NCBI GenBank assembly: GCA_911728435.2
Contig: OU452213.1
Location: 4,195,834 to 4,259,833, forward strand
DNA length: 64,000 nucleotides
Origin: Apoderus coryli
Lineage: Eukaryota; Arthropoda; Insecta; Coleoptera; Attelabidae
Direction of reading: 5' to 3'
Below, one piece after another: positions 19,800 to 58,605 of this stretch. Under the pieces are notes generated by a model. The model did no database searches and had not been told where the DNA came from. It worked only from the letters and a program-made list of their open reading frames with translations. The first letter of the stretch is position 1. Each line of letters starts with the position of its first letter. The position numbers were made by a program, and so were the translations under genes.

Positions 19800-21745
19800 G
19801 TCTTTGAGGTGAAACATGTGCCCTGTGGGAATATATTTGTGAGCCCATTTCTGCCTTTCTAAAAATATTTTCTCAACAGAAAAACACTTTTTCTCCATCA
19901 GTATGTGCATAGGAACAAACATGGTGACTTTGGTGGAAATTGAGAAAAAAAAATTTTTGTGGAAATTACAAAAAAAGTTAAAGTATAAGTAAGTATGGAA
20001 AATTTCTCATTTTTGGTTGAAAAATAGATTTTCTTGAAACTTGGCACGATTATAGAGTTTGATGCGCTGATTCCAAATATATATATAATGTAAGGGGTAG
20101 CATGAAAACCTTGAGCAATACGGACCCTCAAACATAGCCAAAATCATACATTTCTACTAAAATGTCACTTTGACAACTCATAAAAAAATAAGCGTTCTAG
20201 CCTCATTCCTGAGCTTTGGATATGTCCATCGGACATCTATTCCGAATCGATCATGGTATGTAGTGTAGCTCGATTGAGTCAACTAAGCCCAAGGTAGGTC
20301 ATCAAGGAAGGGTCTGCATATAGTCCTGTAGGAATATATTTGTAAGCCTATTTCTGCCCTTCTAAAAATATTTTCTCAACAGAAAAACACTTTTTCACTA
20401 TCAGTATGTGCATAGGAACAAACATGGTGACTTTGGTGGAAATTGAGAAAAAAAAAATTTGTGGAAATTACAAAAAAAATTAAAGTCTTATGTATGGAAA
20501 ATTTCTCATTTTTGGTTGAAAAATAGATTTTCGTGAAACTTGGTACGATTATAGAGTTTGATGCGCTGATTCCAAATATATATATAATGTGGGGGGTAGC
20601 ATGATAACCTTGAGCAATACGGACCCTCAAACATAGCCAAAATCATACATTTCTACTAAAATGTCACTTTGACAACTCATAAAAAAATAAGCGTTCTAGC
20701 CTCATTCCTGAACTTTGGATATGTCCATCGGACATCTATTCCGAATCGATCATGGTATGTAGTGTAGCTCGATTGAGTCGACTAAGCCCAAGGTAGGTCA
20801 TCAAGGAAGGGTCTGCATATAGTCCTGTAGGAATATATTTGTAAGCCTATTTCTGCCCTTCTAAAAATATTTTCTCAACAGAAAAACACTTTTTCTCTAT
20901 CAGTATGTGCATAGGAACAAACATGGTGACTTTGGTGGAAATTGAGAAAAAAAAAATTTGTGGAAATTACAAAAAAAATTAAAGTCTTATGTATGGAAAA
21001 TTTCTCATTTTTGGTTGAAAAATAGATTTTCGTGAAACTTGGTACGATTATAGAGTTTGATGCGCTGATTCCAAATATATATATAATGTGGGGGGTAGCA
21101 TGATAACCTTGAGCAATACGGACCCTCAAACATAGCCAAAATCATACATTTCTACTAAAATGTCACTTTGACAACTCATAAAAAAATAAGCGTTCTAGCC
21201 TCATTCCTGAACTTTGGATATGTCCATCGGACATCTATTCCGAATCGATCATGGTATGTAGTGTAGCTCGATTGAGTCGACTAAGCCCAGGGTAGGTCAT
21301 CAAGGAAGGGTCTGCATATAGCCTTGTGGGAATATTTTTTGAGCCCATTTCTGCCCTTCTAAAAATATTTTCTCAACAGAAAAACACTTTTTCTCCATCA
21401 GTATGTGCATAGGAACAAACATGGTGACTTTGGTGGAAATTGAGAAAAAAAATTTTTTGTGGAAATTGCAAAAAAAATTAAAGTCTATGTATGGAAAATT
21501 TCTCATTTTTGGTTGAAAAATAGATTTTCTTGAAACTTGGCACGATTATAGAGTTTGATGCGCTGATTCCAAATATATATATATAATGTAAGGGGTAGCA
21601 TGATAACCTTGAGCAATACGGACCCTCAAACATAGCCAAAATCATACATTTCTACTAAAATGTCACTTTGACAACTCATAAAAAAATAAGCGTTCTAGCC
21701 TCATTCCTGAGCTTTGGATATGTCCATCGGACATCTATTCCGAAT
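19800..21745. repeat. Tandem array, ~500-bp monomers, about 3.8 copies
   Basis: The anchor AGAAAAACAC recurs at 19878, 20381, 20880 and 21378, giving periods of 503, 499 and 498 bp. Monomers 2 and 3 are nearly identical. Each has the landmarks AGGAACAAACATGGTGACTT, GAGCAATACGGACCCTCAAA and TAGGTCATCAAGGAAGGG. The same monomer, more diverged, occurs at 5650-6590. The repeated 68-84-codon - strand ORFs only reflect the repeat and show no protein motif. Confidence 0.9.
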
Positions 21746-21759
21746 CAGCCTTGTCAAAT

Positions 21760-26258: not shown

Positions 26259-29200
26259 TCAAACATCTGAACTCTTCAAACTCTCCAAAAGCGGTGCAAT
26301 AACTCTAGAGTCTTCAATATTAATATAAACCGACGAAGTCGATGATAAATGCGTTAAATCAGCATCTCTTTCAGAGACTGCACTAACTGCATCATCACTG
26401 GTGTTGTTGGAGTCCTCCTCTTCTGGTATTGAAGGTCTTCTATGATGATCAAAGTTACCTAGTGAAGTGCTTACGTCCAAACTAGTAGCCATACGTTGCT
26501 CTGGGCGGCATTTCTCTGTACAACATGGTTGTTCGAAACTGCGCGATATTATTGGTTTAAACGTAACTTTACTGGAAGATGTTGATGCTGTGGGTGGTTC
26601 TTCTATTGATACTGCAATCTCTATTGGTTTCTCTATCGTTGTTCCAAAACTTATTGTTGGTTGATGGCTAAGATAAAATAGAATTTATTCAAGGCATTTC
26701 ACTATAACCTGCATCGATCGATATCTCAAAAAAAGGCTGCAACCGGAAGTGTCATCATAGTTAAAATATTTTATATGAACATTACTCTATTGACTTTGGT
26801 CCCCTGCCAAAACTTGTACTTTTACTTTTTGAGAAATCGACCGATGCAGTTCGTGGTGAGACACCTTGTATGTTCCAACTTTTTATACAATGTGTCCAAG
26901 TAAATGAGTTAACACAGTCGGCTAAATAGACAGCAACAAGTACGTTCGTTCGTTCTTACCTTGAAGATCTCTCAGTTATTGTCACTGGAGGTGGTTTCCG
27001 TTCATTTTCGAAACTAATAAAATTTCTATGTCTCGAAGTAGTACGTTCAAAACACGACAACCTTCGACTCTTGCAATGTCCAATTAAAGGCGGCCTATCG
27101 ATAGTTATCGAAGGGCGATGGCGTGATATAAAAATTGGTCGTTCTATTGTCAATAACGACGGCCGACGTTCTCTATTCACTATTGGAATAATTGAACCTA
27201 TAACAATAATTATCAAAAAGAACCATTGAATTTGCGGTTACCAATAAAGGCTTCGAAATTGTAAGCAGCAGGTATTTGGAAGCTATTATTGGCAAAGCCT
27301 TTTATCAAAGAATTTGGTTCAGTACCTGTAAAAGAGGCCGTAGGACTATGTTCGTTTACCAAAAGATGTTGTATATCAACGGCAGACCGTGTCCGTCGTG
27401 GTGGATTACTCAAAATCGCCATAGCAGCAGAACTGCCAACAAAAACAGAATTCTGCCGTGGACGGCGGATGATCGGTGAAGGCAACGCTGATAGTGGATC
27501 AGTTAAGGCGTTGACATTGTATTTGGAGAATGACATACGTTGCTAAAAAAAAAAATGTGAGCCTGAAAATACCTTTAATATTTTACGAACAAGAAACCAA
27601 ATGAGAATTGATATCTTAACCTTTGAATTATCACTGGTTTCTTGTTGGTGAATGTGGATAATGGAGCTGAATAGGTTTGAACATGCGTATTCCGTGAATT
27701 AAGTTAAGCTCAGAAAAGCTGATGCCGACAAGATGCGGGTCTTTAATATTTGAGGTCAGGTAAAGGAATCTGAACATAGTTGCCGGTGCTCGTGTCTCAG
27801 GTTTCGCCTGCTCAAGTATCTTTGGCGCTTGGACCTAGTAAGTACCTGTATGTGGCTGTGAGTCTCTGAATTTTAATTCTAAAATATCTATAAAGCTTCG
27901 TAAGCTCAGTGCGAATAAGCTTTGAGAGGAATAAAAACATAATGAAACTGGAAATATACTCAGATCAGTCAAAAATTATACAGAGTGTGCTGATTAAAAA
28001 CCAGAACCATACATAAGCTTGGTTCATTTTCGAGCAACTGCAAAGACAAAATTAACATTATGCATAGTTGTGGTGTTTACAGTGCTCTTAAACTATGGCA
28101 AGCAAGGAAAAATTTCAATTTTTTGATGCTTTTGCTCGGTATTGGACTATAGAACGCTATAATTCAAGCCCTAAGAAACTATCCTTAATGTCACTGTCTT
28201 CGCATGTCGTTTAGCATGCAAATAGCCCTTCATAATAGCATTGTCCTGTCTAAATTAAACTAACGTAACAAACGAACTAGTTTCTTCAAAAATTAGAAAA
28301 AAAAAAAAGTATTGCCAGAGCTAGGACTCGATCCAGTAAGCTTCCGCATGCGAAGCGAACGCCCTACCAACCCAACCCAACAGAGACCTGTTAATGAGTA
28401 GTGTATTTTATTTGTTCGGTGCTCGTTAAACTATGCAGTGCTAGCTAGTTGTATTGGGCAGAGTGAACGAAAAATCTCCACCAGAGTGTCTGAATATGTA
28501 AAATTAGTAAGTAGAGCAACCGAAACACTCTTTTTTGAGTCCGTAATTTTCCTTTCCTACACAGAAACATTTTTTTTTACCTCTAATCATTTGAAACCAC
28601 TGACTGACTGATCGAATTATTGTCATTAGAACAGTTTCACCTTCAAAATGAAGCGTAAGCCTGCTGCTAAAAAGCAGAAAACTCGTGTCATTCTTTAACT
28701 AAAAAAAACATACGGCTGATGGTATAATCAATTTCTGTGTTCGGCCGACTTTAGGCAATGTAGAGTACGTGTTGTTGTTGTTGTTAATAATGTTGCTAGA
28801 ACAACTGTTATTGTTGTTAGAAATAGCGGTAGTTGCCACAACAGAGTTGCTCACTTGTGTGCTGATAGCTGGCGGGCTAAGAGGCGCCAACGGGCATGAA
28901 GGTCGATGCGGTTGCTGATGGAACTTCGGTTGGTATGGTTCCAACATGCGGATTTTGCCCCAACGGTTGAAAAACAGCGCTATCGCTGCTACCCAGATGA
29001 TTAGGACAAGGACCACGAGGAGAACTTCTTCTACACGGACTATGATCACTGGTCCATCTGCAACAATATAAGAACTTATAATTACAGTAAATCGGTAGAA
29101 GTTGCACATCTCTCGAGAACAGTCTGTCCAAGTCGATACTGAAAATTAAAAGCAGTTTTCCTTCTCGAATAAGACATGCATTTACACTTCTTAGCATTTA

Positions 29201-32200
29201 GATAGAGCTTGTTATTGTTACACCAACTCTCCATCGCCTCAAGCTCACTCTGAAGACCTATGCAGTCCTCGTACGACACGATAGTGGCGAACAGCTTGAC
29301 ATCGTCAGCGAAAAACAACCTGTTAACTTGCAGACACTCGTTAAGATCGTTAATGAAGATCAAGAAAAGTAGGGGACCCAAGTTTGAACCCTGAGGCACA
29401 CCAGATGATGCTTTATATTTTTTGGAATTGTAGCCATTATAAACTACATACTGTAGTCTGTTTCGAAGATATGAAATAAACAACGATTTCAGGTTATTGA
29501 CAAACCCATAGCTGTCCAGCTTCCGAATTAGCACCCCATGATCCAACCTGTCGAAAGCCTTGGCAAAGTCGGTATAAATAACATCTAGCTGTCCCCCCCC
29601 ATCGACAATACGCGTGGCCCTCTCTGTGAAACAAGAAAGATTAGTAAGAGTGGACCTACTCGGCATAAAACCGTGTTGATTTATGGTGAATTGACCACGC
29701 AATGCAGAAGAGATTCTATCACTCAAGATGGCTTCAAAGATCTTGGACAGATTTGACAGGATGCAGATCGGGCGGTAGTTGCTGATGAGTGATCTCTCGC
29801 CAGACTTGTTTCGCTCTTGTTATGAGCTCGTCAGAGTACCATAGTCGTTGCCCATCTACAAATATCGGCCTGCATTTAAGCACAATAGGATACACAACAG
29901 TAGACACATGTAAACACGTATCATCTACATGTACATAGTAATGCATATCCTATACCATGCAGAGGCCGAACAAACTCAATGTATAGGTAAAGCCAGTCGT
30001 ATAAATAGAAATAAATATAAATAAAAATAGTATGAACACAAAACGCTAGCAGGAGACCATTTTATCCTTCTGTCAGCATCTCCCAAATGTTTGGGTTTCA
30101 GCAATGCTCGGACGGTGGTCTCCAAGCGTTCTGCCGTCGATGTTTAATGCCAAATAATGAAAAATTAAAAGGATTTCATGTCCGTAAATATAATAAATGA
30201 AAATAATTTCGTGGCAAAGCGGACTAAAATGTTGGTTTTACCTACACAAGGAATTTTGTTTAATTTAGCAGGGCCCCAGTCTAATTCAATAGAACCAGAC
30301 CGAGGCATGGGTCGACAGATACTGACGAATTCGTTTCGCTCTTGTTATGAGCTCGTCAGAGTACCATAGTCGTTGCCCATCTACAAATATCGGCCTGCAT
30401 TTAAGCACAATAGGATACACAACAGTAGACACATGTAAACACGTATCATCTACATGTACATAGTAATGCATATCCTATACCATGCAGAGGCCGAACAAAC
30501 TCAATGTATAGGTAAAGCCAGTCGTATAAATAGAAATAAATATAAATAAAAATAGTATGAACACAAAACGCTAGCAGGAGACCATTTTATCCTTCTGTCA
30601 GCATCTCCCAAATGTTTGGGTTTCAGCAATGCTCGGACGTTCTGCCGTCGATGTTTAATGCCAAATAATGAAAAATTAAAAGGATTTCATGTCCGTAAAT
30701 ATAATAAATGAAAATAATTTCGTGGCAAAGCGGACTAAAATGTTGGTTTTACCTACACAAGGAATTTTGTTTAATTTAGCAGGGCCCCAGTCTAATTCAA
30801 TAGAACCAGACCGAGGCATGGGTCGACAGATACTGACGAATTCATTTCGCTCTTGTTATCAGCTCGTCAGCGTACCATAGTCTGCTGGCAGAAGGATAAA
30901 ATGGTCTCCTGCTAGCGTTTTTTGTGTATACTATTTTTAGTTATATTTATTTCTATTTATATGACTGGTTTTACCTATACATTGAGTTTGTTCGGCCTCT
31001 GCATGGTATAGGACACCGTAGATATAAAAATAAGTAGTGTCACAGGCTGTCGGCCGTTTCATCTTACGGTTACAAAGCGCTTGCCGACGAACGTGCTGGG
31101 AGTGACATGTACGAGGTCACATATCGCAAAATGTTTACGTTACACGGCGATGATATACTACGGGGTCTACAAAAAAAATGCTTGAACATTTTAATTTAAG
31201 CTGTAATTTTATTTTACGTTAATAAAATACTTACTTTTTTTTATTAATTAATTAAAATTATGTATTAATCAAATATTTTTAAACAGTACTACTAATATTA
31301 AAAAAGAGTAATGGGAATATTTAAAATATTAATTACCGATTTCACATTTAAAATCATAGTTTAAAAAGAACAGCATTCATACAGAATGAACACAATATTA
31401 AAAGCAGTACTAGGCTCTATTTTTAACTACCTTAAAAGCAATTAATAATACCAGACTAGAATAAATATACAGTAATGCCTATCTTATAATAATAATTATA
31501 CAGTGTGTCCGAATAAGCTGTCTTTTGTCGATTTATGATGCTAAATAAATTACATTATGTAATAAACAGCCTTTTTAGCAAAACCAATACTTAGCTCATA
31601 TGATAGTTAGTCCTTGTACTGAACTGGCAACAATTTTAGACAGCACGTAACGTTAGGGAAAGAATAAGTGCAAACAAAATACATACTTTAACATTTCCCT
31701 AATGTAGTAATCCCGCATAGAGCAAGGAAGAGCCATATTTATTAAAATACCTTGGCCATGTCATGAGACAGGACAAATTCAGATTCCTGCAACTGATTAT
31801 GGAGGGCAAGATTGAGGGAAAACGTGGTCCTGGACGTAGACAGTGCTCTTGGCTGAAAAACATAAGGGATTGGACTCAAACTCCCTGCTAAGAAGAGCCC
31901 CAGACAGAGATGAATTTGCCAAGATTGTTCCTGATCTTTATTGAATGGAGAAGGCACTTCAAGTAGAACAATGTTGTAACGTAATGTAATACAGGGTCCG
32001 CAAATATTATCTAGGAAAGCATCAAGTATCGATGCGCTTTTCGTTAATAATATTAGTGTATTCTGGAGATAATCAAAATGGATGGCTAAACAGCGAGAAT
32101 TAAAAAAAAGTGTATAACGAAGTTTATTATAAATGCTTTGATTTTTTTGTTATAATGTTATTGCGATTATTTTCAATCATTTATCGTTTAAATTCTTAAT

Positions 32201-35200
32201 TTTAAGTATAATTATACCCAAGTAATAAGCCGCAATTTCCAGTTCAAATAATACTTTGTTATTATTGTCCAAAGATAAACTTATAACTATATAAAAAATC
32301 GAAATTTTAATAATTATTTAATATACAACAAAATATCCAAACGGTATATCATCAAAGCGTGTATAACAAAGGACAGGCGGTATATATCATCTAGACCAGA
32401 CTTACTGAGTGCGGTGGAGAGGCAATAAGGGAGGTAAATGGGCGGGGACTCAATGTGACCCTTCTAGTCGTAGTATATTTTCGATGGTATAGGATATGTA
32501 TTACTATGTACATGTAGATGATACGTGTTTACATGTGTCTACTGTTGTATATCCTATTGTGCTTAAATGCAGGCCCAGGGTTGCCAACTTGGTAGATTTT
32601 CTACTAAATCTGGTAGATTCAGGTCTTCATTTAGTGGGCAAATTTCTGTTTTAGTGGGCAGTAGAAAATCTAGTAGAATCCGAATTATTATTAAACGACT
32701 TTCTTCTATTTTGTTGGTGCATTCGTAACTCTAGAAGCGAGCAAACTATAACCGATAATTCACTATATAATTTAGTTCATTGTGGAGCTGCTAGATAGCG
32801 GAACGTTTCAGTCTCCGTCTCTTTCGATTTTGCCAGAGAATCTGGGGGAATCACCGTCAGGATCAGTGCGTATTGTAAATTGTATTTGCATAGTGCATAT
32901 TATGTTGTTCTTTACTATTATTTTCGTTTATTAAGCTGGTTTAGCTAGCAGAGTGTAATATATTACCAGTGGCGGCACTTGTTTGATACTGAGGTAAGTA
33001 CATCGACAATCAAATAAGATTTAAAAGACATATAATTAAAATAACAGAGCTATCCATGCGCCATGCCTAAAACGTATACTCAGAAGTTTAGAGAAGCGTG
33101 GTTGAAGGACCCTATTTTCAAGGAATAGTTGCTGGCCATTGACAGCACTTCTGAGAAAGAAGCCATATGCAAGTTTTGTGGCAAAATCATCACCAGCCGA
33201 TACGCCGACCTGAAAAGCCATGGAGATTCAAAAACACACAAAGAAAATGCAAGCGTTTTCTTGGGGAGGTCGTTCCAGGGAAAAGTACAGCAAAAAATTA
33301 CTTTTTCGGCTGTAGATGAGCAAGAGGACACCAAGTTGGCTGAGAGAAGGTTAGCCCTTTTTATTGCTCAACATACCTCCGTAAATATTTCTGATCACTT
33401 CACACATCAGTGATTAGCACAGACATAGGCACTGATAGTTCTAAGTCAGAGATATATATATATATTCCTGTTCTGAGTGCAGGAAGTATAAAATAAACTG
33501 TTTAATTTTAAACTAATAACATATTCCTTTTTATTAAGGGAACTTGGCAACACCTAGTAGATTTTTTGGTAGTTTTAGAAAATTTCATATTTCTCGTATA
33601 GTAGATTTCTAATAGATTCGATAATCTCATTTAGTAGATCTTCTTTCGGAGGTGTTGGCAACCCTGTGCAGGCCGATATTTGTAGATGGACAACGACTAT
33701 GGTACTCTGACGAGCTCATAACAAGAGCGAAACGAATTCGTCAGTATCTGTCGACCCATGCCTCGGTCTGGTTCTATTGAATTAGACTGGGGCCCTGCTA
33801 AATTAAACAAAATTCCTTGTGTAGGTAAAACCAACATTTTAGTCCGCTTTGCCACGAAATTATTTTCATTTATTATATTCACGGACATGAAATCCTTTTA
33901 ATTTTTGGTATATTAGCCGTTTGTGAGAAATATACCATCAAATAATGTCAAGAAATTCTGTGGCAGCGTTTTGATTAACCAAAAAAGTATGTTTTTCGTT
34001 CTAAAACATTTATTATATCCATGTAACACTTGGAGCACGTGCAAGATAAACGAAATATATATTTCCTAGCATAATATATATTCGTTTTGAAACTAACAAG
34101 GAAAAACTCTGGGAGTTTTCTCGCTAAAGTGAAATATTGCAAAATTATACAGTAACATTGTAGCACTTTTTAAGTTTTGTATTTGTATTCTGCACATTAT
34201 GCCATACAAAGCAACCGTTTTATGTCGATATAAAAAAGTTTACTGAATGCAGCGATAAATATGTATATATTTCTGTAAAATCAACATTAAAAAAGCATGT
34301 GTTTCCTGCCGTGGTACCATAGTGTTAAAAAATTGGAAATAGTAAATTTACCAAAAGTATTCAAATAGTTTTTATAACGTTTTCCACAAACACAATTTAA
34401 TTTACACTGAAAGGTCCATTCTTACCCCTTGAAAGACCTGTATAACAATTTTCACCAGTGATTAAATGATAAATGAAAGCAACAAACATGTTTTTAGACT
34501 CACAAATTATACTTCGCTATGAACTCAATTCCTCGTCGTACCAAAATATTTATTTAATTTTGTTATTCCATTCAAATTATTCTCCCTTCTATTGCAAGGT
34601 AAACCGTACAAGTATTATATCTAATAATTACAGTTTAGTGGGGTGCTTTCATGTTTAATATTTCATCAAAAATCGATGGTTCGGAACAATATCAAGGGGA
34701 CGTGCTAGTTTTGTAATGGATGTAATCCAAACAGAAAGAACGGTTTTACCTATATTTACATCGGATTAATATATCTACAGGCTGTTTAAAAAAAGGTGGG
34801 ACATGATTCCTTAGGTTATTTTATCAAAAATACATTGTTTCAGAGGTACAGTACAGTACAGTACAGTACGCCACTGACTGTTTTCTAATTTAGATATTTT
34901 GTTTAAATAAAACAACGAAAATTACCACTTTCTTAAACTTTCGTCGTATCTTGCTTCATTTTCGAAATATATAAATTGATAATTAATTTGTTGTCAATAA
35001 TTTTGGTTAAGGTGTCCCACGAACCCCATTAAACTTATTTTTGAAAAACTTGTAATAAAACGGACGGGCAATGGAATTCACTTTTGTCCGGCCCTGTGGT
35101 TATGTCTGAGCTTTATGGTTTATATTAGTTTGGGAATATTATTTAAGTAGATTGTATACAAATGTTCTAAACTCAGTCATAAAATTCATGGGTATGATTT

Positions 35201-44432: not shown

Positions 44433-46811
44433 GCTCTCCATATCATACATATATGTAATATATGTATATATGGAGACTATTAGTTTCATGAAAAAAATTT
44501 TTTTTTTAATTTCACCGGAAATACTTCTTTTTGGTCATTTTATACATAAATAAGTAGTTTTAAAAAAATGTCTGTCTGTCTGTCTGTCTGTATCCACGAA
44601 AACGCAAAAACCGCTTAACAGATTTTAACCAAATTTGGTACAAAAATACTATTGGACATGGCAAGGAGCTGATTAGATTTTGGGAAACATTGAGCGTAGG
44701 CAAAGGGTTTAAAAGAGGGTTCAAAAATTAAAAAAATTCATAGTTCTTAAACTTATCCGAAATACTACATAATTTTTTACGCATTTAATTGAATATAACC
44801 TAAAATATTGAACATAAAATATTAGACCACATTGGCGTTCGAAAATTGTGTAAAATGGGGTAAAAAATATTAAAAAAAACGTATTTCTTAAAAATAGCAG
44901 AAATATTAACTAGTTATTGATAGTTTTGATAGAATATAACCTATAAAATGTGTCATGAATAACTTACTTTCATAGGCGTTCGTAAATAGTGGAAAAGGGG
45001 TCAAAACATAAAAAATATATATTTCCTAAACTTATTCGAAATATGGAATAATTTTTCATAGTTGTGATACAATATAAGCTAAAAAATATTCCATAAAAGA
45101 ATTGGTTCACACAGGCGTTCGAAAATAGTTTAAAAAAGGGTCAAAAACGAAAAAAAAAACGTTTCCCAAATATACCAGAAAAATTGGCTAATTATATATA
45201 GCTTTGATATAAGATAACCTAAAAAATGCAGCATAAAATTTTTAATTACATAGGCGTTCGTAAATAGTAGAAAAAGGGGTAAAATAAAAAAAAATTAAAA
45301 TGTAAAAAATTTTATATTTAACTAGATGAATTGGTGTTAAAAATACACGACAAAAATTAATGTACCATAGGCGTCCGTAAAAATTCTATAAAAGGGTCAG
45401 AAAAAATTTGTATCCGTGATAACTCAAAAACCACTTAACGGATTTTAACCACATTTGGTACGAAAATACTACAGGATAATTATAGGTGGTGATTAACATT
45501 GAGCGTAGGCAACGGGTTTAAAAGAGGTTTCAAAAATTTAAAAAATCATAGTTCTTAAACTTATCCGAAATATTGAATAATTTTTTATAGTTGTGATAGA
45601 ATATAACCTAAAAAATGTTACATAAAAGAATTAGTTCACACAGGCGTTCGAAAATAGTGTTAAAAAAGGGTCAAAAACGAAAAAAAATGTTTCCCAAATA
45701 TACCAGAAAAATTGGCTAATTATATATAGCTTTGATATAAGATAACCTAAAAAATGCAGCATAAAATTTTTATTTACATAGGCGTTCGTAAATAGTAGAA
45801 AAAGGGGTAAAATAAAAAAAATTAAAATGTAAAAATTTTTATATTTAATTAGTTGAGTTGGTGTTAAAAATACACGACAAAAATTAATGTTCCATAGGCG
45901 TCCGTGAAAATTCTATAAAAGGGTCAGAAAAAATTTGTATCCGTGATAACTCAAAAACCACTTAACGGATTTTAACCACATTTGGTACGAAAATACTACA
46001 GGCTATTTATAGGTGGTGATTAACATTGAGCGTAGGCAAGGGGTTTAAAAGAGGGTTCAAAAATTTAAAAAAATTATAGTTCTTAAACTTATCCGAAATA
46101 TTGAATAATTTTTTATAGGTGTGATAGAATATAACCTAAAACATGTTACATAAAAGAATTAGTTCACACAGGCGTTCGAAAATAGTCTTAAAAAAAGAGT
46201 CAAAAACGAAAAAAAAATGTTTCCCAAATATACCAGAAAAATTGGCTAATTATATATAGCTTTCATATAAGATAACCTAAAAAATGCAGCATAAAATTTT
46301 TATTTACATAGGCGTTCGTAAATAGTAAAAAAAAGGGGTAAAATGAAAAAAAAATTAAAATGTAAAAAATTTTATATTTAACTAGTTGAATTGGTGTTAA
46401 AAATACACGACAAAAATTAATGTTCCATAGGCGTCCGTGAAAATTCTATAAAAGGGTCAGGAAAAAATTGTATCCGTGATAACTCAAAAACCACTTAACG
46501 GATAACCTACAACATGCAGCATAACAATTTTGTTTACATAGGCGTTCGTAAATAGTAGAAAAGGGGGCAAAATAAATTTTATAATAAAACTAAAAAAAAA
46601 AATCAATTATTTTGCGTACAAGAATTTGGCCTAGATCTGAAATATAAAATATCTGCGTATAAATAGTGCCTCCAAAGAGAAGAAAAAGGCACAAAACCCG
46701 ATACAAAAAAAAAAAAAAAAATAGCTGATGTCTAAAACAAAACAAAAATTTAGATAAATGACAAAAAGGTCATAAAATTATTACTTTTACACTTAAATAT
46801 GGAGAGCTATT
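44433..46811. repeat. Higher-order tandem repeat inside a short-TIR element
   Basis: TATCCGTGATAACTCAAAAA recurs at 45411, 45938 and 46471 (periods 527 and 533 bp), with a diverged first copy at 44591. Within each large unit a subunit of about 120-140 bp with AGGCGTTCGTAAATAGT or a variant is repeated four to five times (44832, 44971, 45111, 45251, 45366). The whole begins after a TCTG microsatellite and is bracketed by AGCTCTCCATAT (44433) and its complement (about 46798-46811). That bracket suggests a non-autonomous element that captured or grew the array. No coding capacity. Confidence 0.8.
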
Positions 46812-52765: not shown

Positions 52766-54074
52766 TAAATTGGCAAGATTCGTACGGATACAGTCTTTCC
52801 CGTGTTACAAAGGCAACTATTCATATTGTGAGCCTTGCAGTTGACTTAGGTGACATTACAAGCGCTCAGGGCTCATCGTTACATCAGCAACCTGCTTGAA
52901 ATGTAGATATCAGGGTGCCCACGAAAAGTCCTGAGCACCTAATTCGCGCAAAAAAGGAAGTGGGCAGGCCCAATGATAGTCGAGACCCCCCTCTCTTACC
53001 TTTTCGCATTTTTAGGGTAAAATCAGTTTCACGATTCTGAACAAAATGTGGAATACGCTTAATTATTAATTTTCAATAACGCCGGCCGCAACCGTGTATG
53101 AAATACTTCTAATAGTATTTGATGTACTATTAAATTTTTACAATAGCATGTCTCCACTCCATTTTCTATACAAAAAAGACAGAGAAGTGTTCTCGAAACA
53201 AATTTTCCTTTTCGATATATTGATTTGCTTCAATTAATATGCTTTTAGACAGTTTAGATCACAGAGAAACCTATTTCTGTCTTTGTGTTCAACTTCGTTG
53301 TTAGTATTATTAAAATATGAAACCTCTGCATTTAATTTTTAAAAATAAAATAGCAAAATTAACAAAAGCAACTCAACTCGAAACTATTTTCTTTCCGTTC
53401 TACTCGGTCTAAAACATACCACCATACCATTTCTGATTACTTAGTTTCCTTTATATTCCTTTTCTAAATTACTTGGATCATCTGCTTAAAACCACTCAAC
53501 GATAATAAGAACAATAATCTTGAAGAAGAGTATACGACGCTACTCTATATAAACGTACCACTATAATAGAGCTTTCAATTAAGAGCATGAATTGTTTTTG
53601 GGTTTATCGTGGATATTACCGTTTCCGGTTTTAGTAGGAACTTCCGCCGGCTGCCTGCGAGGAAGAGCGGCTTAGGGTTTGTTGGAAGTACAGATGGTAA
53701 GCAGGGTTTCCGATAGCGCAGGTGCTAATGGGAAATTAATTGAGAATTAGTGAAAATAAAAATGGAATTTTAAATCAAATGAAAATTCTGAAAGAATTTG
53801 TATCGTATACGTATAAAGCTTTTGACCAGCTCATAAATAAGGTCAGTATCTGTCGACCCCATGCCTGAGTCTGATTAAACAATATCCAGTATAATTTTGT
53901 ACAGCACTATGCCACAAAATTATGTTGCTAACTATATTGGAATGGACATAATATCACTTCATTAATTTAGTTTGGTCAAGACATTTCGTATCGATAACGT
54001 GAACAATCTACATCAGCAAGTGTGGGTTCTATTTGGCTCTGGAGCAGGAAATTTCTTGGAGCCTTCTTGTAGAT
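52766..54074. other. Mostly unassigned; faint retrozyme trace
   Basis: At 53842-53878 GGTCAGTATCTGTCGACC followed by CATGCCTGAGTCTG resembles the retrozyme sequence next to the hammerhead, but similarity soon fades. No genes are seen. Confidence 0.35.
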
Positions 54075-55450: not shown

Positions 55451-56090
55451 AAATTTCGAATTGTGCTTTTTCAATGGTCTCATTTTTATATTAATTAGGA
55501 GAGGGTATATAGACAAGAGCCGACAAACTGGCAGATGACTATTTTATCCTTTTGCTAGCATCACCACAGTGAGTGGTCTTCAAGCGTTTCCCTTCGGAAA
55601 TTTGAGTAATGTCCTATACGGATGTTACAGACAAACGGCTCATTCGTCATATTTTTTCAGGTATGTATACCTATATGAGGTGATCCGGTGATCCGGTCCT
55701 GGCGCCTGTGTTGAGTGTTGTTTTAAATATCGTCTCCGTAAAAATATTGATTTAATAGTGAAATTTGAAGTTGATTACGCCTGGTTTGTTTTGAACGTGA
55801 ATGTCTTCTTGTATTGTCACTTAGTGTTAGAAAAAACTGTAAGTAACGATTCAGAATTATTAGAATTTGATTAGAACGTTATTAAAAAGGTGCCAAATTA
55901 TTGGTAGATACTTTCGTTTTGTTTATCAATTGTCTGATAAGGAAGGTACTGTATACCTGTAGTAGTACCTATAGTGCACAGAATCGAACTTAATATTATA
56001 CGTTAATTTGTTCATACAAAAATTTCGGTTATGGGAAATAACGAAAATATTACAAATAAAGATATTTATGAGCTACTAAAAAGTGTAGTA
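55451..56090. other. Unassigned, with faint retrozyme-like fragment
   Basis: ATGACTATTTTATCCTTTTGCTAGC near 55536 and GTGGTCTTCAAGCG near 55575 resemble parts of the retrozyme unit but are diverged. Nothing else is supported. Confidence 0.3.
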
Positions 56091-56378
56091 TTCGTTTCGC
56101 TCTTGTTATGAGCTCGTCAGAGTACCATAGTCATTGCCCATCTACAAATGGCCTGCATTTAAGCACAACAGGATACACAACAGTAGACACATGTAAACAC
56201 GTATCATCTACATGTACATAGTAATGCATATCATATACCATGCAGAGGCCGAACAAACTCAATGTATAGGTAAAACCAGTCGTATAAATAGAAATAAATA
56301 TAAATAAAAATATTTAAGTAAGTTTTTCTTTATTTGGGTTGTAGGTCGTAAACAATAAAACTCAGTTTTAAATATCAC

Positions 56379-56411
56379 TAACGTTTCAATCTATATTAGA
56401 TCATCCTCAGA
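56379..56411 (-). ncRNA. Hammerhead-like motif, foldback 4, left arm
   Basis: On the - strand: CTGAGGA, one unpaired T, 6-bp stem GATCTA/TAGATT (one G-U) with loop ATA, then GAAACGTTAGTG. The cleavage triplet is not a good NUH (GTG). Confidence 0.4.
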
Positions 56412-56711
56412 GTGCTGCAAAAAATACAAATCATATGTATATCAAGAAGGAACGCATACATTTAAAATATTATCAAAAAACAAGACAGATAACACTTAAA
56501 AAAAAAAAATGTAAGTGTTACCTCTCTTCAAATATTATAATTCGATTGTTGTTTTTTTATTTTAATGTTTTGAATTTATGTTCCTGTTTTAATGTGTTTT
56601 GTTTCTTTTTTTTTTTCTTATGTATAATTTTCAATTAATTGTTTTTTGATAATATTTTAAATGTATGCGTTCCTTCTTGATATACATATGATTTGTATTT
56701 TTTGCAGCACT

Positions 56712-56746
56712 CTGAGGATGAACTAATATAGATCGAAACGTTAGTG
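56712..56746 (+). ncRNA. Hammerhead-like motif, foldback 4, right arm
   Basis: CTGAGGA, T, GAACTA-ATA-TAGATC (one mismatch), GAAAC, GTTAGTG. Mirror copy of the left-arm motif. Confidence 0.4.
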
Positions 56747-57142
56747 ATATTTAAAACTGAGTTTTATTGTTTACGACCTACAACCCAAATAAAGAAAAAA
56801 CTTACTTAAATATTTAACAGAAGGTCAAAAAAACTTAGCAAAATAAATAAAAATAGTATGAACACAAAACGCTAGCAGGAGACCATTTTATCCTTCTGCC
56901 AGCATCTCCCAAATATTTGGGTTTCAGCAATGCTCGGACGGTGGTCTCCACCGTCGATGTCTAATGCCAAATAATGAAAAATTAAAAGGATTTCATGTCC
57001 GTAAATATAATAAATGAAAATAATTTCGTGGCAAAGCGGACTAAAATGCTAGTTTTACCTACACAAGGAATTTTGTTTAATTTAGCAGGGCCCCAGTCTA
57101 ATTCAATAGAACCAGACCGAGGCATGGGTCGACAGATACTGA

Positions 57143-57970
57143 CATGCATTACTATGTACATGTAGATGATACGTGTTTACATGTGTCTACTGTTGTGTAT
57201 CCCATTGTGCTTAAATGCAGGCCGATATTTGTAGATGGGCAACGACTATGACGAGCTCATAACAAGAGCGAAACGAATTCGTCAGTATCTGTCGACCCAT
57301 GCCTCGGTCTGGTTCTATTGAATTAGGCTGAGGCCCTGCTAAATTAAACAAAATTCCTTGTGTAGGTAAAACCAGCATTTTAGTCCGCTTTGCCACGAAC
57401 AGTGCTGCCGTTTTAGTACAATTGTACTGAATTTAGTACAAAATTGACAAATTCAGTACGTCAGTACTACATTTTGAGCAAACCCCCAATTTCAGTACGA
57501 AATCCCAAAAAGGCAATAAAGCCTAGCACAATCTAGTGGATAAACTCAACTGGGTTTACATATGCTACAAATGGTAATGATGCAGTAGTCCTGCGAGCAT
57601 TACTTGGCATGATTTTGTAATTCCCCGAAATTTAAAATTTAATAATACTTTTTGAGGCAATAATCAGCTTACCACATGGTAGTGCTGCAGCTGCTGGTCT
57701 GACCGATGAATTTATTTAGTTTTTTCTTTGTTATAATAAAAAAAATATTTTATTTCACCTTTCGTTCGTTCTGAAATGCACAGAACGCTATTTTCAAGAA
57801 AAACTCTTGATAGATTTTTGAGTTCCCGTCATTCAGTACATTTTGTACGAATTCGGTACATTTTCTGTCACAGACTCAGTACGCTTTGCAAACTAGCAGC
57901 GGCAGCGTTGGCCACGAAATTATTTTCATTTATTATATTTACGGACATGAAATCCTTTTAATTTTTCATT
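57143..57970 (+). mobile_element. Retrozyme-like copy facing the previous one, split by a hAT MITE
   Basis: + strand unit fragments at 57143-57399 and 57911-57970. Its hammerhead (about 57250-57291) has lost GTACTC, so the core reads TATGACGA and the invariant C is gone. The halves are separated by a 511-bp insertion with an 8-bp duplication. Confidence 0.85.
57400..57910. mobile_element. hAT-type MITE, 511 bp
   Basis: Target duplication GCCACGAA at 57392-57399 and 57911-57918. Inverted ends CAGTGCTGCCG and CAACGCTGCCG (complement of the right end) match at 9 of 11 positions. The interior is rich in AGTACA motifs and codes for no recognised protein. Confidence 0.85.
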
Positions 57971-58605
57971 ATTAATTAATATCATGCACGTTGTCGAACT
58001 GACAGCAGAATCTGATAAAGGAGTCGTAAGTAATTGGATAATGTGCTCCTTTTTTAAGAAAATTATGGAGTTTTTATTTCTCAATCAATTTTATTCTGCT
58101 ACTCAACTTCATAAAGAAAGAATAATAATAATAAAAAAATCTGAGAATATAAACTGTCCTAATCATATAACATTTTAGCACAGAGAAATAGATTCCAGAT
58201 ACTGGATAAATCGTTTTCCAGACATCTGGCACATCTGTTCTATATAAATACAGTCTCAGTACAGAGGCGGAACTACACGTATCTTATGTTATTTTATCTA
58301 AGATTTGATACAGCAAAAACTATTAAAATCGACCCGCACTGTATATTACCACACTTTTTAAGGTTTGATGAAATAAAACTTAATTTGCAAGCTAAATTAC
58401 CGTTGGCTATATTGGGTAAACAACATGCTTATTATATGAATAATATTGACTTCATTAAGCACGCCACTAATGGAAAAACCTTTTAAGCGAAATTTGAGTG
58501 TAACAATCAGCATTTATGTCTGTAAGCTACAGAGTATGGTTCGTTTAATGTATCTGTGTTCAATTACGGTAGGCGATTTCTAAATTTTAGTGAAAAAACT
58601 AATTA
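57971..58605. other. No recognised gene
   Basis: A 66-codon ORF at 58286-58486 (+) has no recognisable motif and no splice context that I can support. Confidence 0.35.

What the first reader, a model, noticed from the sequence alone, without database searches (positions are those of the whole stretch)
29811..31012. Retrozyme-like tandem units bounded by a canonical type I hammerhead ribozyme
A 511/525-bp non-coding unit is tandemly repeated with hammerhead positions at all three boundaries. The middle one (30318-30365, - strand) satisfies every invariant hammerhead position: CTGACGA, G-C closed stem II, GAAA, stem III formed by the palindrome ACGAATTCGT, GTC triplet and a 6-bp stem I. Animal and plant retrozymes are tandem, non-coding, hammerhead-bounded retroelements that circulate as small circRNAs. 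The structure is read directly; the retrozyme interpretation is inference from known organisation.
Basis: partly seen in the sequence, partly recalled or inferred. Interest (0 to 1): 0.92.

Follow-up and report, generated by a model that had tools for sequence, protein, structure and literature searches.

The report
Hammerhead retrozyme with Penelope-type insertion signature
This is a small non-coding jumping element carrying a self-cleaving RNA motif, common in this animal genome, and the way its copies sit in the DNA points to the enzyme of another element, Penelope, as the machine that copies it.

Summary
Window 29808-31013 carries a 511/525-nt non-coding tandem with an intact type I hammerhead at 30318-30365 (-). 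A second intact one at 33701-33748 (+) was missed. The left hammerhead is cut off by the element's end, the right one is decayed, and a third piece (30883-31013) is inverted.

In the window's own genome a 35-nt core word occurs 1,249 times. Of 37 loci sampled (best matches, so biased to young copies), 33 are two tandem arms head to head whose outer ends are sense 3' ends. Matching flanks of 11-15 nt bound 31 of 37, against 4 of 1,332 mismatched controls. In 28 of 30 two-arm loci with a duplication one end lies at unit position 155-172, the other at 124-130; none has two ends of one kind. The two arms of a locus are near-identical.

Head-to-head arms plus a one-sided tail is the published form of endonuclease-bearing Penelope elements (PLEs); 4 of 5 PLEs examined here show it too. 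Most likely a retrozyme whose RNA is cleaved, circularised and copied into both cut target strands by PLE enzyme. PLE mobilisation was proposed in print; this is insertion-level evidence. Cleavage, circles and the enzyme are inferred.

The parts
29808..30323 (-). Copy A, unit next to the left end: 516 nt of a 525-nt unit; the sense 3' end of the element lies at 29808, inside the hammerhead
30324..30834 (-). Copy A, complete unit of 511 nt between two hammerhead cleavage sites (14-nt deletion relative to 525)
30318..30365 (-). Intact type I hammerhead motif (stem I 6 bp, stem II 4 bp, stem III 3 bp + AATT); predicted cleavage between 30324 and 30323
30829..30876 (-). Decayed hammerhead: core kept, stem I pair 1.1/2.1 and last stem II pair lost
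29808..29840 (-). Truncated hammerhead (5' part only) at the element's left end
30835..30882 (-). 48-nt remainder of a further upstream unit
30883..31013 (+). Inverted second arm of copy A (unit positions 232-362 of the 511-nt unit), 95% complementary to the main arm
32484..32575 (+). Copy C, first piece (positions 352-443)
33667..33906 (+). Copy C, second piece (positions 436-511, 1-164)
33701..33748 (+).
56090..56312 (-). Copy B, main arm, 3' part (positions 281-506)
56843..57143 (-). Copy B, main arm, 5' part (positions 509-511, 1-293)
57144..57399 (+). Copy B, inverted arm, first piece (364-511, 1-116); hammerhead damaged
57911..57973 (+). Copy B, inverted arm, second piece (109-171)
53842..53873 (+). 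Short fragment of the unit (positions 509-511, 1-28)

Best explanation
The window holds damaged copies of an animal (non-LTR type) retrozyme, a non-autonomous, non-coding retroelement of 525-nt units joined at type I hammerheads, mobilised by the reverse transcriptase/endonuclease of Penelope-like elements (PLEs). Proposed cycle: (1) an array is transcribed; (2) the hammerheads cut the transcript into unit-length RNA (inferred); (3) the RNA is ligated into a circle, or a multimer stays uncut (inferred); (4) the PLE enzyme cuts both strands of an AT-rich target roughly 10-13 bp apart (stagger read from the duplications; enzyme inferred); (5) both target 3' ends prime reverse transcription inside the RNA, downstream of the cleavage junction, one at about position 160, the other at about 127 (end positions shown; priming inferred); (6) each copy runs up to seven units round the template (lengths shown); (7) the two cDNAs are joined head to head. 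The window copies are older, mutated insertions.
For: Hammerhead: strict motif 2 in window, 0 in 200 shuffles; a 35-nt word from CTGACGA to the GT of the cleavage triplet occurs 1,249 times genome-wide, a 35-nt word from stem II through the cleavage site 1,269 times, reversed controls 0. Insertion unit: antisense arm left, sense arm right in 33 of 37 loci fetched from the best matches; L011, L020, L030 and L043 have one arm. Matching flanks >=11 nt in 31 of 37 versus 4 of 1,332 mismatched pairs; these words are 81.6% AT against 67.9% in the outer flanks. Ends: 28 of 30 two-arm loci with a duplication >=9 nt have one long and one short end, 0 long/long, 0 short/short. Less selected check on contig C1, from exact word positions: 12 of 14 informative two-arm clusters carry the long-end word at exactly one end and lack it at the other, 0 at both (5 of the 12 are also in the 37). 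Orientation among the first 100 places listed: 15 of 15 and 19 of 20 opposite-strand neighbours are head to head. One template per element: in 31 loci the two arms differ at 39 of 10,897 sites, random pairing of arms 1.3%, 0 of 5,000 permutations as low; 11 alleles private to one locus occur in both arms, 8 of them in every pass; one element with 10 hammerheads has 526-nt spacing throughout, in both arms. PLEs of this genome: 18 divergent GIY-YIG pairs 0.7-4 kb apart; RVT_1 + GIY-YIG in 2 of 3 ORFs tested; head-to-head palindromes, and in 4 of 5 examined a tail of about 30-36 nt at one end only plus a 10-12-bp duplication (read by eye). Print: head-to-head pLTRs, optional 31-bp tail on one, 8-10-bp duplications (PMC3846280, abstract and passages); a PLE enzyme that cuts and extends both strands and starts at two adjacent internal sites that define the tail (PMC11167929, parts 1-2 of 4).
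Against: No RNA data: cleavage, circles and expression are untested. No Rfam match at gathering level; the predicted minimum-energy fold pairs the core with the substrate strand instead. Copies A and B of the window show no duplication and have non-standard ends; copy C shows a 7-nt match only. Two of the 30 loci (L019, L042) have other ends; 6 of 37 have no flank match of 11 nt. Of two extra C1 loci fetched, L074 shows no duplication and a non-standard left end, and L073 was cut too short to judge. The 37 loci were the best matches, so biased to young copies. In one search, 5 of 19 clusters are uninformative and 2 run past the usual end; the 'short' class there is read from the absence of an exact word. 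One of 20 neighbour pairs is the other way round. Genome-wide word counts fall 1,731 - 1,478 - 792 across the end zone: a drop as expected, but unequal steps (253, 686) where equal use would predict equal ones; word mutability was not controlled. Only short, weak matches between the unit and the PLE loci fetched, so the partner PLE is not identified; the PLE L069 ORF scores no Pfam domain at E 0.001, and L071 has one end inside its hammerhead. 48 private alleles occur in one arm only although both cover the site (expected of later mutation). A linear multimeric RNA would explain the homogeneous units as well as a circle.
Confidence: 0.82

Rival explanations
1. A satellite DNA (as the cave-cricket pDo500 family is described) spread by unequal crossing-over, with the hammerhead as a passenger.
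For: Tandem units of about 500 bp with a hammerhead are known as satellite DNA in crickets (PMC2837043, parts 1-2 of 5); units are homogeneous within arrays.
Against: Sampled copies are dispersed, with matching flanks of 11 nt or more in 31 of 37 loci, fixed ends and a head-to-head turn; crossing-over is not expected to make these.
Confidence: 0.03
2. Mobilised by a LINE (for example the jockey-like element beside copy A), the inversion being L1-type twin priming.
For: Inverted 5' piece, and small overlaps between the arms at the turn in some loci (other loci show gaps or larger overlaps, partly from mapping); a jockey-like RT abuts copy A.
Against: In twin priming (recalled) the outer edge of the inverted piece varies; here it lies at 124-130 or 155-172 in 28 of 30 loci. 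PLEs of this genome share the architecture; no LINE copies were examined for it. No common A-tail in the flanks printed.
Confidence: 0.06
3. The units are detached pseudo-LTRs of an autonomous PLE, not an independent retrozyme.
For: Same architecture, and PLE pseudo-LTRs carry hammerheads (PMC7761336 passages).
Against: Units join directly to units, up to 7 in one arm, with no room for a gene between; most hammerhead motifs seen in the PLE loci have a shorter stem III (the L068/L070 motif is intermediate); only short, weak similarity to the PLE loci fetched. Not all PLE families were examined.
Confidence: 0.09
4. The head-to-head arrays are assembly artefacts.
For: Long inverted repeats are hard to assemble.
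Against: 19 of 31 two-arm elements mapped are under 1.5 kb, they turn at different positions, and most have their own duplication; the same form is published for PLEs.
Confidence: 0.01

Closest known systems
Metazoan non-LTR retrozymes (Cervera and de la Pena 2020, PMC7229834; parts 1-4 of 6 read)
   Same: Type I hammerhead in short, GC-poor, non-coding tandem repeats with target duplications longer than 4 bp, co-existing with PLEs
   Different: Unit 525 nt, above their 150-450 bp range; the head-to-head two-arm form with paired ends is not in the parts I read; their circular RNA is shown, here it is inferred
Endonuclease-bearing Penelope-like elements (Arkhipova 2013 PMC3846280, abstract and passages; Frangieh 2024 PMC11167929, parts 1-2 of 4)
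   Same: Head-to-head inverted ends, tail of about 30 nt on one, duplications of similar size (8-10 bp in the passages, 10-12 bp in four PLEs here), hammerhead upstream of the 3' end
   Different: No gene in the unit; hammerhead with a 3-bp stem III; ends 124-172 nt downstream of the cleavage site
pDo500 satellite of Dolichopoda cave crickets (PMC2837043, parts 1-2 of 5)
   Same: About 500-bp insect tandem unit with a hammerhead and a proposed double-hammerhead form
   Different: Described as satellite DNA; no sequence comparison was made here
Plant LTR retrozymes (as described in PMC7229834; the original paper PMC4918200 seen in listings only)
   Same: Non-coding, hammerhead-bounded, thought to move as circular RNA
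   Different: Type III hammerheads, LTR machinery, 4-bp duplications

Membership tests
Metazoan non-LTR retrozyme | Canonical type I hammerhead with complete core | tested here: met
   (133 of 137 sampled copies core-intact; copies pre-selected at <=5 mismatches)
Metazoan non-LTR retrozyme | Loop-loop contacts between helices I and II | not testable with these tools
   A bulged helix I and a 7-nt loop II are present; tertiary contacts cannot be computed here
Metazoan non-LTR retrozyme | Short tandem repeats, reported range 150-450 bp | tested here: inconclusive
   Tandem met; unit 525 nt in 62 of 72 full units, above the printed range
Metazoan non-LTR retrozyme | GC below 50%, no coding gene | tested here: met
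   38.7-39.4% GC; no ORF of 120 aa or more within 29820-31013
Metazoan non-LTR retrozyme | Target-site duplications larger than 4 bp | tested here: met
   31 of 37 loci with matching flanks of 11-15 nt, microhomology included; control 4 of 1,332
Metazoan non-LTR retrozyme | Self-cleavage, and linear plus circular unit-length RNA | not testable with these tools
   No RNA data held
Metazoan non-LTR retrozyme | PLEs in the same genome | tested here: met
   150 GIY-YIG matches, 18 divergent close pairs; RVT_1 + GIY-YIG in 2 of 3 ORFs; hammerhead motifs in PLE loci
Penelope-like element (as a member) | Encodes RT and GIY-YIG endonuclease | tested here: not met
   No ORF of 120 aa or more in the tandem units of the window
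Penelope-like insertion architecture (as mechanism) | Head-to-head inverted ends | tested here: met
   33 of 37 loci; 15 of 15; 19 of 20
Penelope-like insertion architecture (as mechanism) | Tail of about 30 nt at one of the two ends | tested here: met
   28 of 30 loci; 12 of 14 informative C1 clusters
pDo500 satellite | Sequence homology to pDo500 | not tested
   No pDo500 sequence was fetched
Plant LTR retrozyme | Type III hammerhead and 4-bp duplications | tested here: not met
   Type I layout; matching flanks 11-15 nt

The most novel reading that the evidence does not exclude
The paired ends record a concerted two-ended target-primed reaction: a dimeric PLE enzyme cuts both target strands and its two subunits start copying the same RNA circle at two fixed sites about 33 nt apart, one per strand, each running round the circle several times before the two cDNAs meet head to head. 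The PLE 'tail' would then be a built-in asymmetry of the two-subunit reaction rather than an optional extension, and a hammerhead-made RNA circle would be its natural template.
Probability: 0.5. Interest if true: 0.88.

Novelty: new variant of a known kind. Interest (0 to 1): 0.74.

Why it matters
Which enzyme moves animal retrozymes is open in what I read: PLEs are named a strong or likely candidate on co-occurrence and shared hammerheads (PMC7229834; PMC7761336, passages), and 'may rely on PLEs' (PMC8969392, passages). Here a family with over a thousand hammerhead cores shows, in the loci sampled, the PLE insertion signature, which can be tested directly with a purified PLE protein and the unit RNA. 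The one-long, one-short rule also bears on how PLEs insert, where published views differ (antisense self-priming; internal start on both strands). My searches for retrozymes with inverted arms, PLE tails or insects (listings, several capped at 20 rows) showed no title describing this. The 2021 PLE survey by Craig and others was not held, so priority is not established.

Tried and rejected
Rfam search of the window gave nothing at gathering level. A viral-contig scan for the stem II/core pattern found 2 contigs; in L001 I read the motif and found no direct repeats around it, in L002 no direct repeats either, and its file was not yet in the box when I looked; not followed. The protein search with the jockey-like RT to name the host gave, in the 120 rows shown of 1,935, one named organism, a beetle at 46% identity. 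The PLE protein search named several insects and a springtail among the 120 rows shown of 685. So the host is called an arthropod by inference only. I first read the inverted piece of copy A as L1-type twin priming; the fixed outer ends of the other loci made me drop that. A first end-mapping by local alignment over-extended into AT-rich flanks and its script stopped with an error after printing; ends were redone from duplication boundaries. A first count of intact cores used wrong indices and printed 0 of 148; corrected. The hammerhead scan was too strict for PLE hammerheads and found none; with the core alone found them, along with matches that may be chance. The arm comparison used 31 of 37 loci: L011, L018, L019, L020, L030 and L043 were left out as not simple two-arm copies, and short outer pieces of L012, L034 and L045 were not used. 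One search used 99 of the 100 listed places. The genome-wide count comparison across the ends lacks a control for word mutability (not completed).

Full report
Observation. Direct repeats at spacing 525 and 511 lie at 29808-30882, and the two units differ only by one 14-nt indel over their shared length. On the minus strand the middle boundary holds a complete type I hammerhead. A loose core pattern matches 4 times in the window against 0.18 expected; a strict descriptor with stems gives 2 matches and none in 200 dinucleotide shuffles. The left hammerhead is truncated by the element's end; the right one is decayed. The segment 30883-31013 is an inverted, 95% complementary piece of the same unit.

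Against the ribozyme reading: Rfam gives no match at gathering level, the best ribozyme match in 29700-31200 being HH9 at 20.1 bits, E 0.062. The predicted minimum-energy fold pairs CUGACGA with the substrate strand. For the cricket pDo500 ribozyme, for which cleavage is reported, the hammerhead was also often not the minimum-energy fold (113 of 146 folding sequences; PMC2837043). Stem III is 3 bp closed by AATT inside a 10-nt palindrome, so a dimeric form is possible (inference from the newt and axolotl cases described in PMC7229834).

Other copies in the window. Mapping the 511-nt unit on the window gives copy C (32484-32575 and 33667-33906, +) and copy B (56090-57143, -, plus an inverted arm 57144-57973), each broken by later insertions, and a 32-nt fragment at 53842. 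Two of the insertions duplicate 8 bp of the unit and have inverted ends, as hAT elements do (recalled).

Genome. The window lies in G000, 428 Mb in 129 contigs, unnamed. The unit has 207 matches from 39 scored of 1,616 first-look candidates, a lower bound. A 35-nt word from CTGACGA to the GT of the cleavage triplet occurs 634 + 615 times, and a 35-nt word from stem II through the cleavage site 619 + 650 times; reversed controls 0. Two common variants differ in stem I by one-sided changes that keep all six pairs (pairs read by eye). In the 37 loci fetched, 133 of 137 hammerhead copies keep every invariant core position (copies with more than 5 mismatches to the 36-nt core were not counted).

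Architecture. The 37 loci are clusters of the best matches, so biased to young copies. In 33 of 37 an antisense arm is followed by a sense arm, turning at variable points. Of the 31 mapped as simple two-arm copies, the longest arm is 7.0 units and 44 of 62 arms exceed one unit. Among the first 100 places listed, on contig C1, opposite-strand neighbours within 1.5 kb are head to head in 15 of 15 cases for the core word and 19 of 20 for another unit word.

Ends and duplications. A shared flanking word of 11-15 nt was found in 31 of 37 loci; pairing left and right flanks of different loci gives 4 of 1,332. These words are 81.6% AT, the outer flanks 67.9%. In 525-nt coordinates (cleavage between 525 and 1), 30 two-arm loci have a duplication of 9 nt or more. 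28 of them have one end at 155-172 and the other at 124-130, 18 with the long end left and 10 right. None has two of a kind; if ends were drawn independently and equally this would have a chance of about 2^-28 (hand calculation). The two exceptions are L042 (511/160) and L019 (75/177). As a less selected check I used exact word positions on C1: of 19 two-arm clusters 14 are informative, 12 carry the long-end word at exactly one end and lack it at the other, none at both, and 2 run past the usual end on one side. Five of these 12 are also among the 37. Genome-wide counts of 25-nt words before, between and after the two end zones, up to 2 mismatches, are 1,731, 1,478 and 792. The fall is as predicted, but its two steps are unequal and uncontrolled. 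Of two further C1 loci fetched, L074 shows no duplication and a non-standard left end, and L073 was cut too short to judge.

One template per element. Arms of the same locus differ at 39 of 10,897 compared sites (31 loci), against 1.3% for random pairs of arms (0 of 5,000 permutations as low). Eleven alleles unique to one of these loci are present in both of its arms, eight of them in every pass; 48 are in one arm only. Full units are identical in 50 of 64 within-arm, 34 of 56 between-arm and 146 of 2,436 between-locus comparisons. One C1 element with 10 hammerheads has 526-nt spacing throughout both arms, another 515 twice; window copy A mixes 511 and 525, and one element has a single 556 spacing, which a strictly uniform template does not give. 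On the whole this fits several rounds of copying of one RNA circle; a homogeneous linear multimer is not excluded. Arms that cross the cleavage junction and end downstream of it need a template in which that junction was uncut or re-sealed (inference).

Penelope link. The GIY-YIG family has 150 matches; 18 divergent pairs 0.7-4 kb apart are among them, and I noticed no close convergent pair in the listing. Three fetched pairs are palindromes; two of their three ORFs score RVT_1 plus GIY-YIG in Pfam, the L069 ORF scores nothing at E 0.001. Read by eye, L068, L069, L070 and L072 have a tail of about 30-36 nt at one end only and a duplication of 10-12 bp; L071 has one end inside its hammerhead. 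Their hammerhead motifs have a short stem III. The published PLE form is head-to-head pseudo-LTRs with an optional 31-bp tail on one (PMC3846280, abstract and passages). A PLE enzyme from the green anole cuts and extends both strands and starts at two adjacent internal sites that define the tail (PMC11167929, parts 1-2 of 4). That paper saw no difference in start site between strands in bulk; here nearly every sampled two-arm insertion with a duplication uses both sites, one per end.

Reading. I file the element as a metazoan non-LTR retrozyme (new variant: larger unit, two-arm form) and hold that it works by PLE-type insertion; it is not itself a PLE, since it has no gene. The partner PLE is unknown: only short, weak matches were found to the PLE loci fetched. 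The window copies A and B are atypical, with no duplication and one end inside the hammerhead, a minor end class also seen in L042 and in the PLE L071.

What is shown: motif, tandem, copy number, and, in the loci sampled, two-arm form, duplications, end positions and arm similarity, plus PLEs of the same form in the same genome. What is inferred: cleavage, circularisation, the enzyme, and simultaneous two-ended priming.

Noticed in passing
window 32576-33666 and 57400-57910: Two insertions inside retrozyme copies with inverted ends (CAG...CTG-like) and 8-bp duplications of the unit (TGCAGGCC, GCCACGAA), hAT-like by recall
   Followed up: partly
window 56313-56842: About 530-bp insertion with inverted ends inside copy B
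   Followed up: no
window 19822-21746: Separate tandem array, period 499, 3.8 copies, 96% matches
   Followed up: no
window 44792-45294 and 46095-46363: Two AT-rich arrays of about 140-bp period with similar-looking units
   Followed up: no
window 29082-29819 (-): Jockey-like RT fragment ending directly at copy A; its upstream part was not recognised by eye on the other side, so copy A may sit at a deletion or a chimeric junction
   Followed up: partly
L042, L071 and window copies A, B: Minor class of ends lying inside the hammerhead, in both the retrozyme and a PLE
   Followed up: partly
L068, L069, L070, L072: PLEs of this genome inserted as long head-to-head palindromes (arms 98.6-99.6% identical)
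   Followed up: partly
L001 7763-7789 (-): Single hammerhead-like motif with the same stem II in a 193-kb viral contig
   Followed up: no
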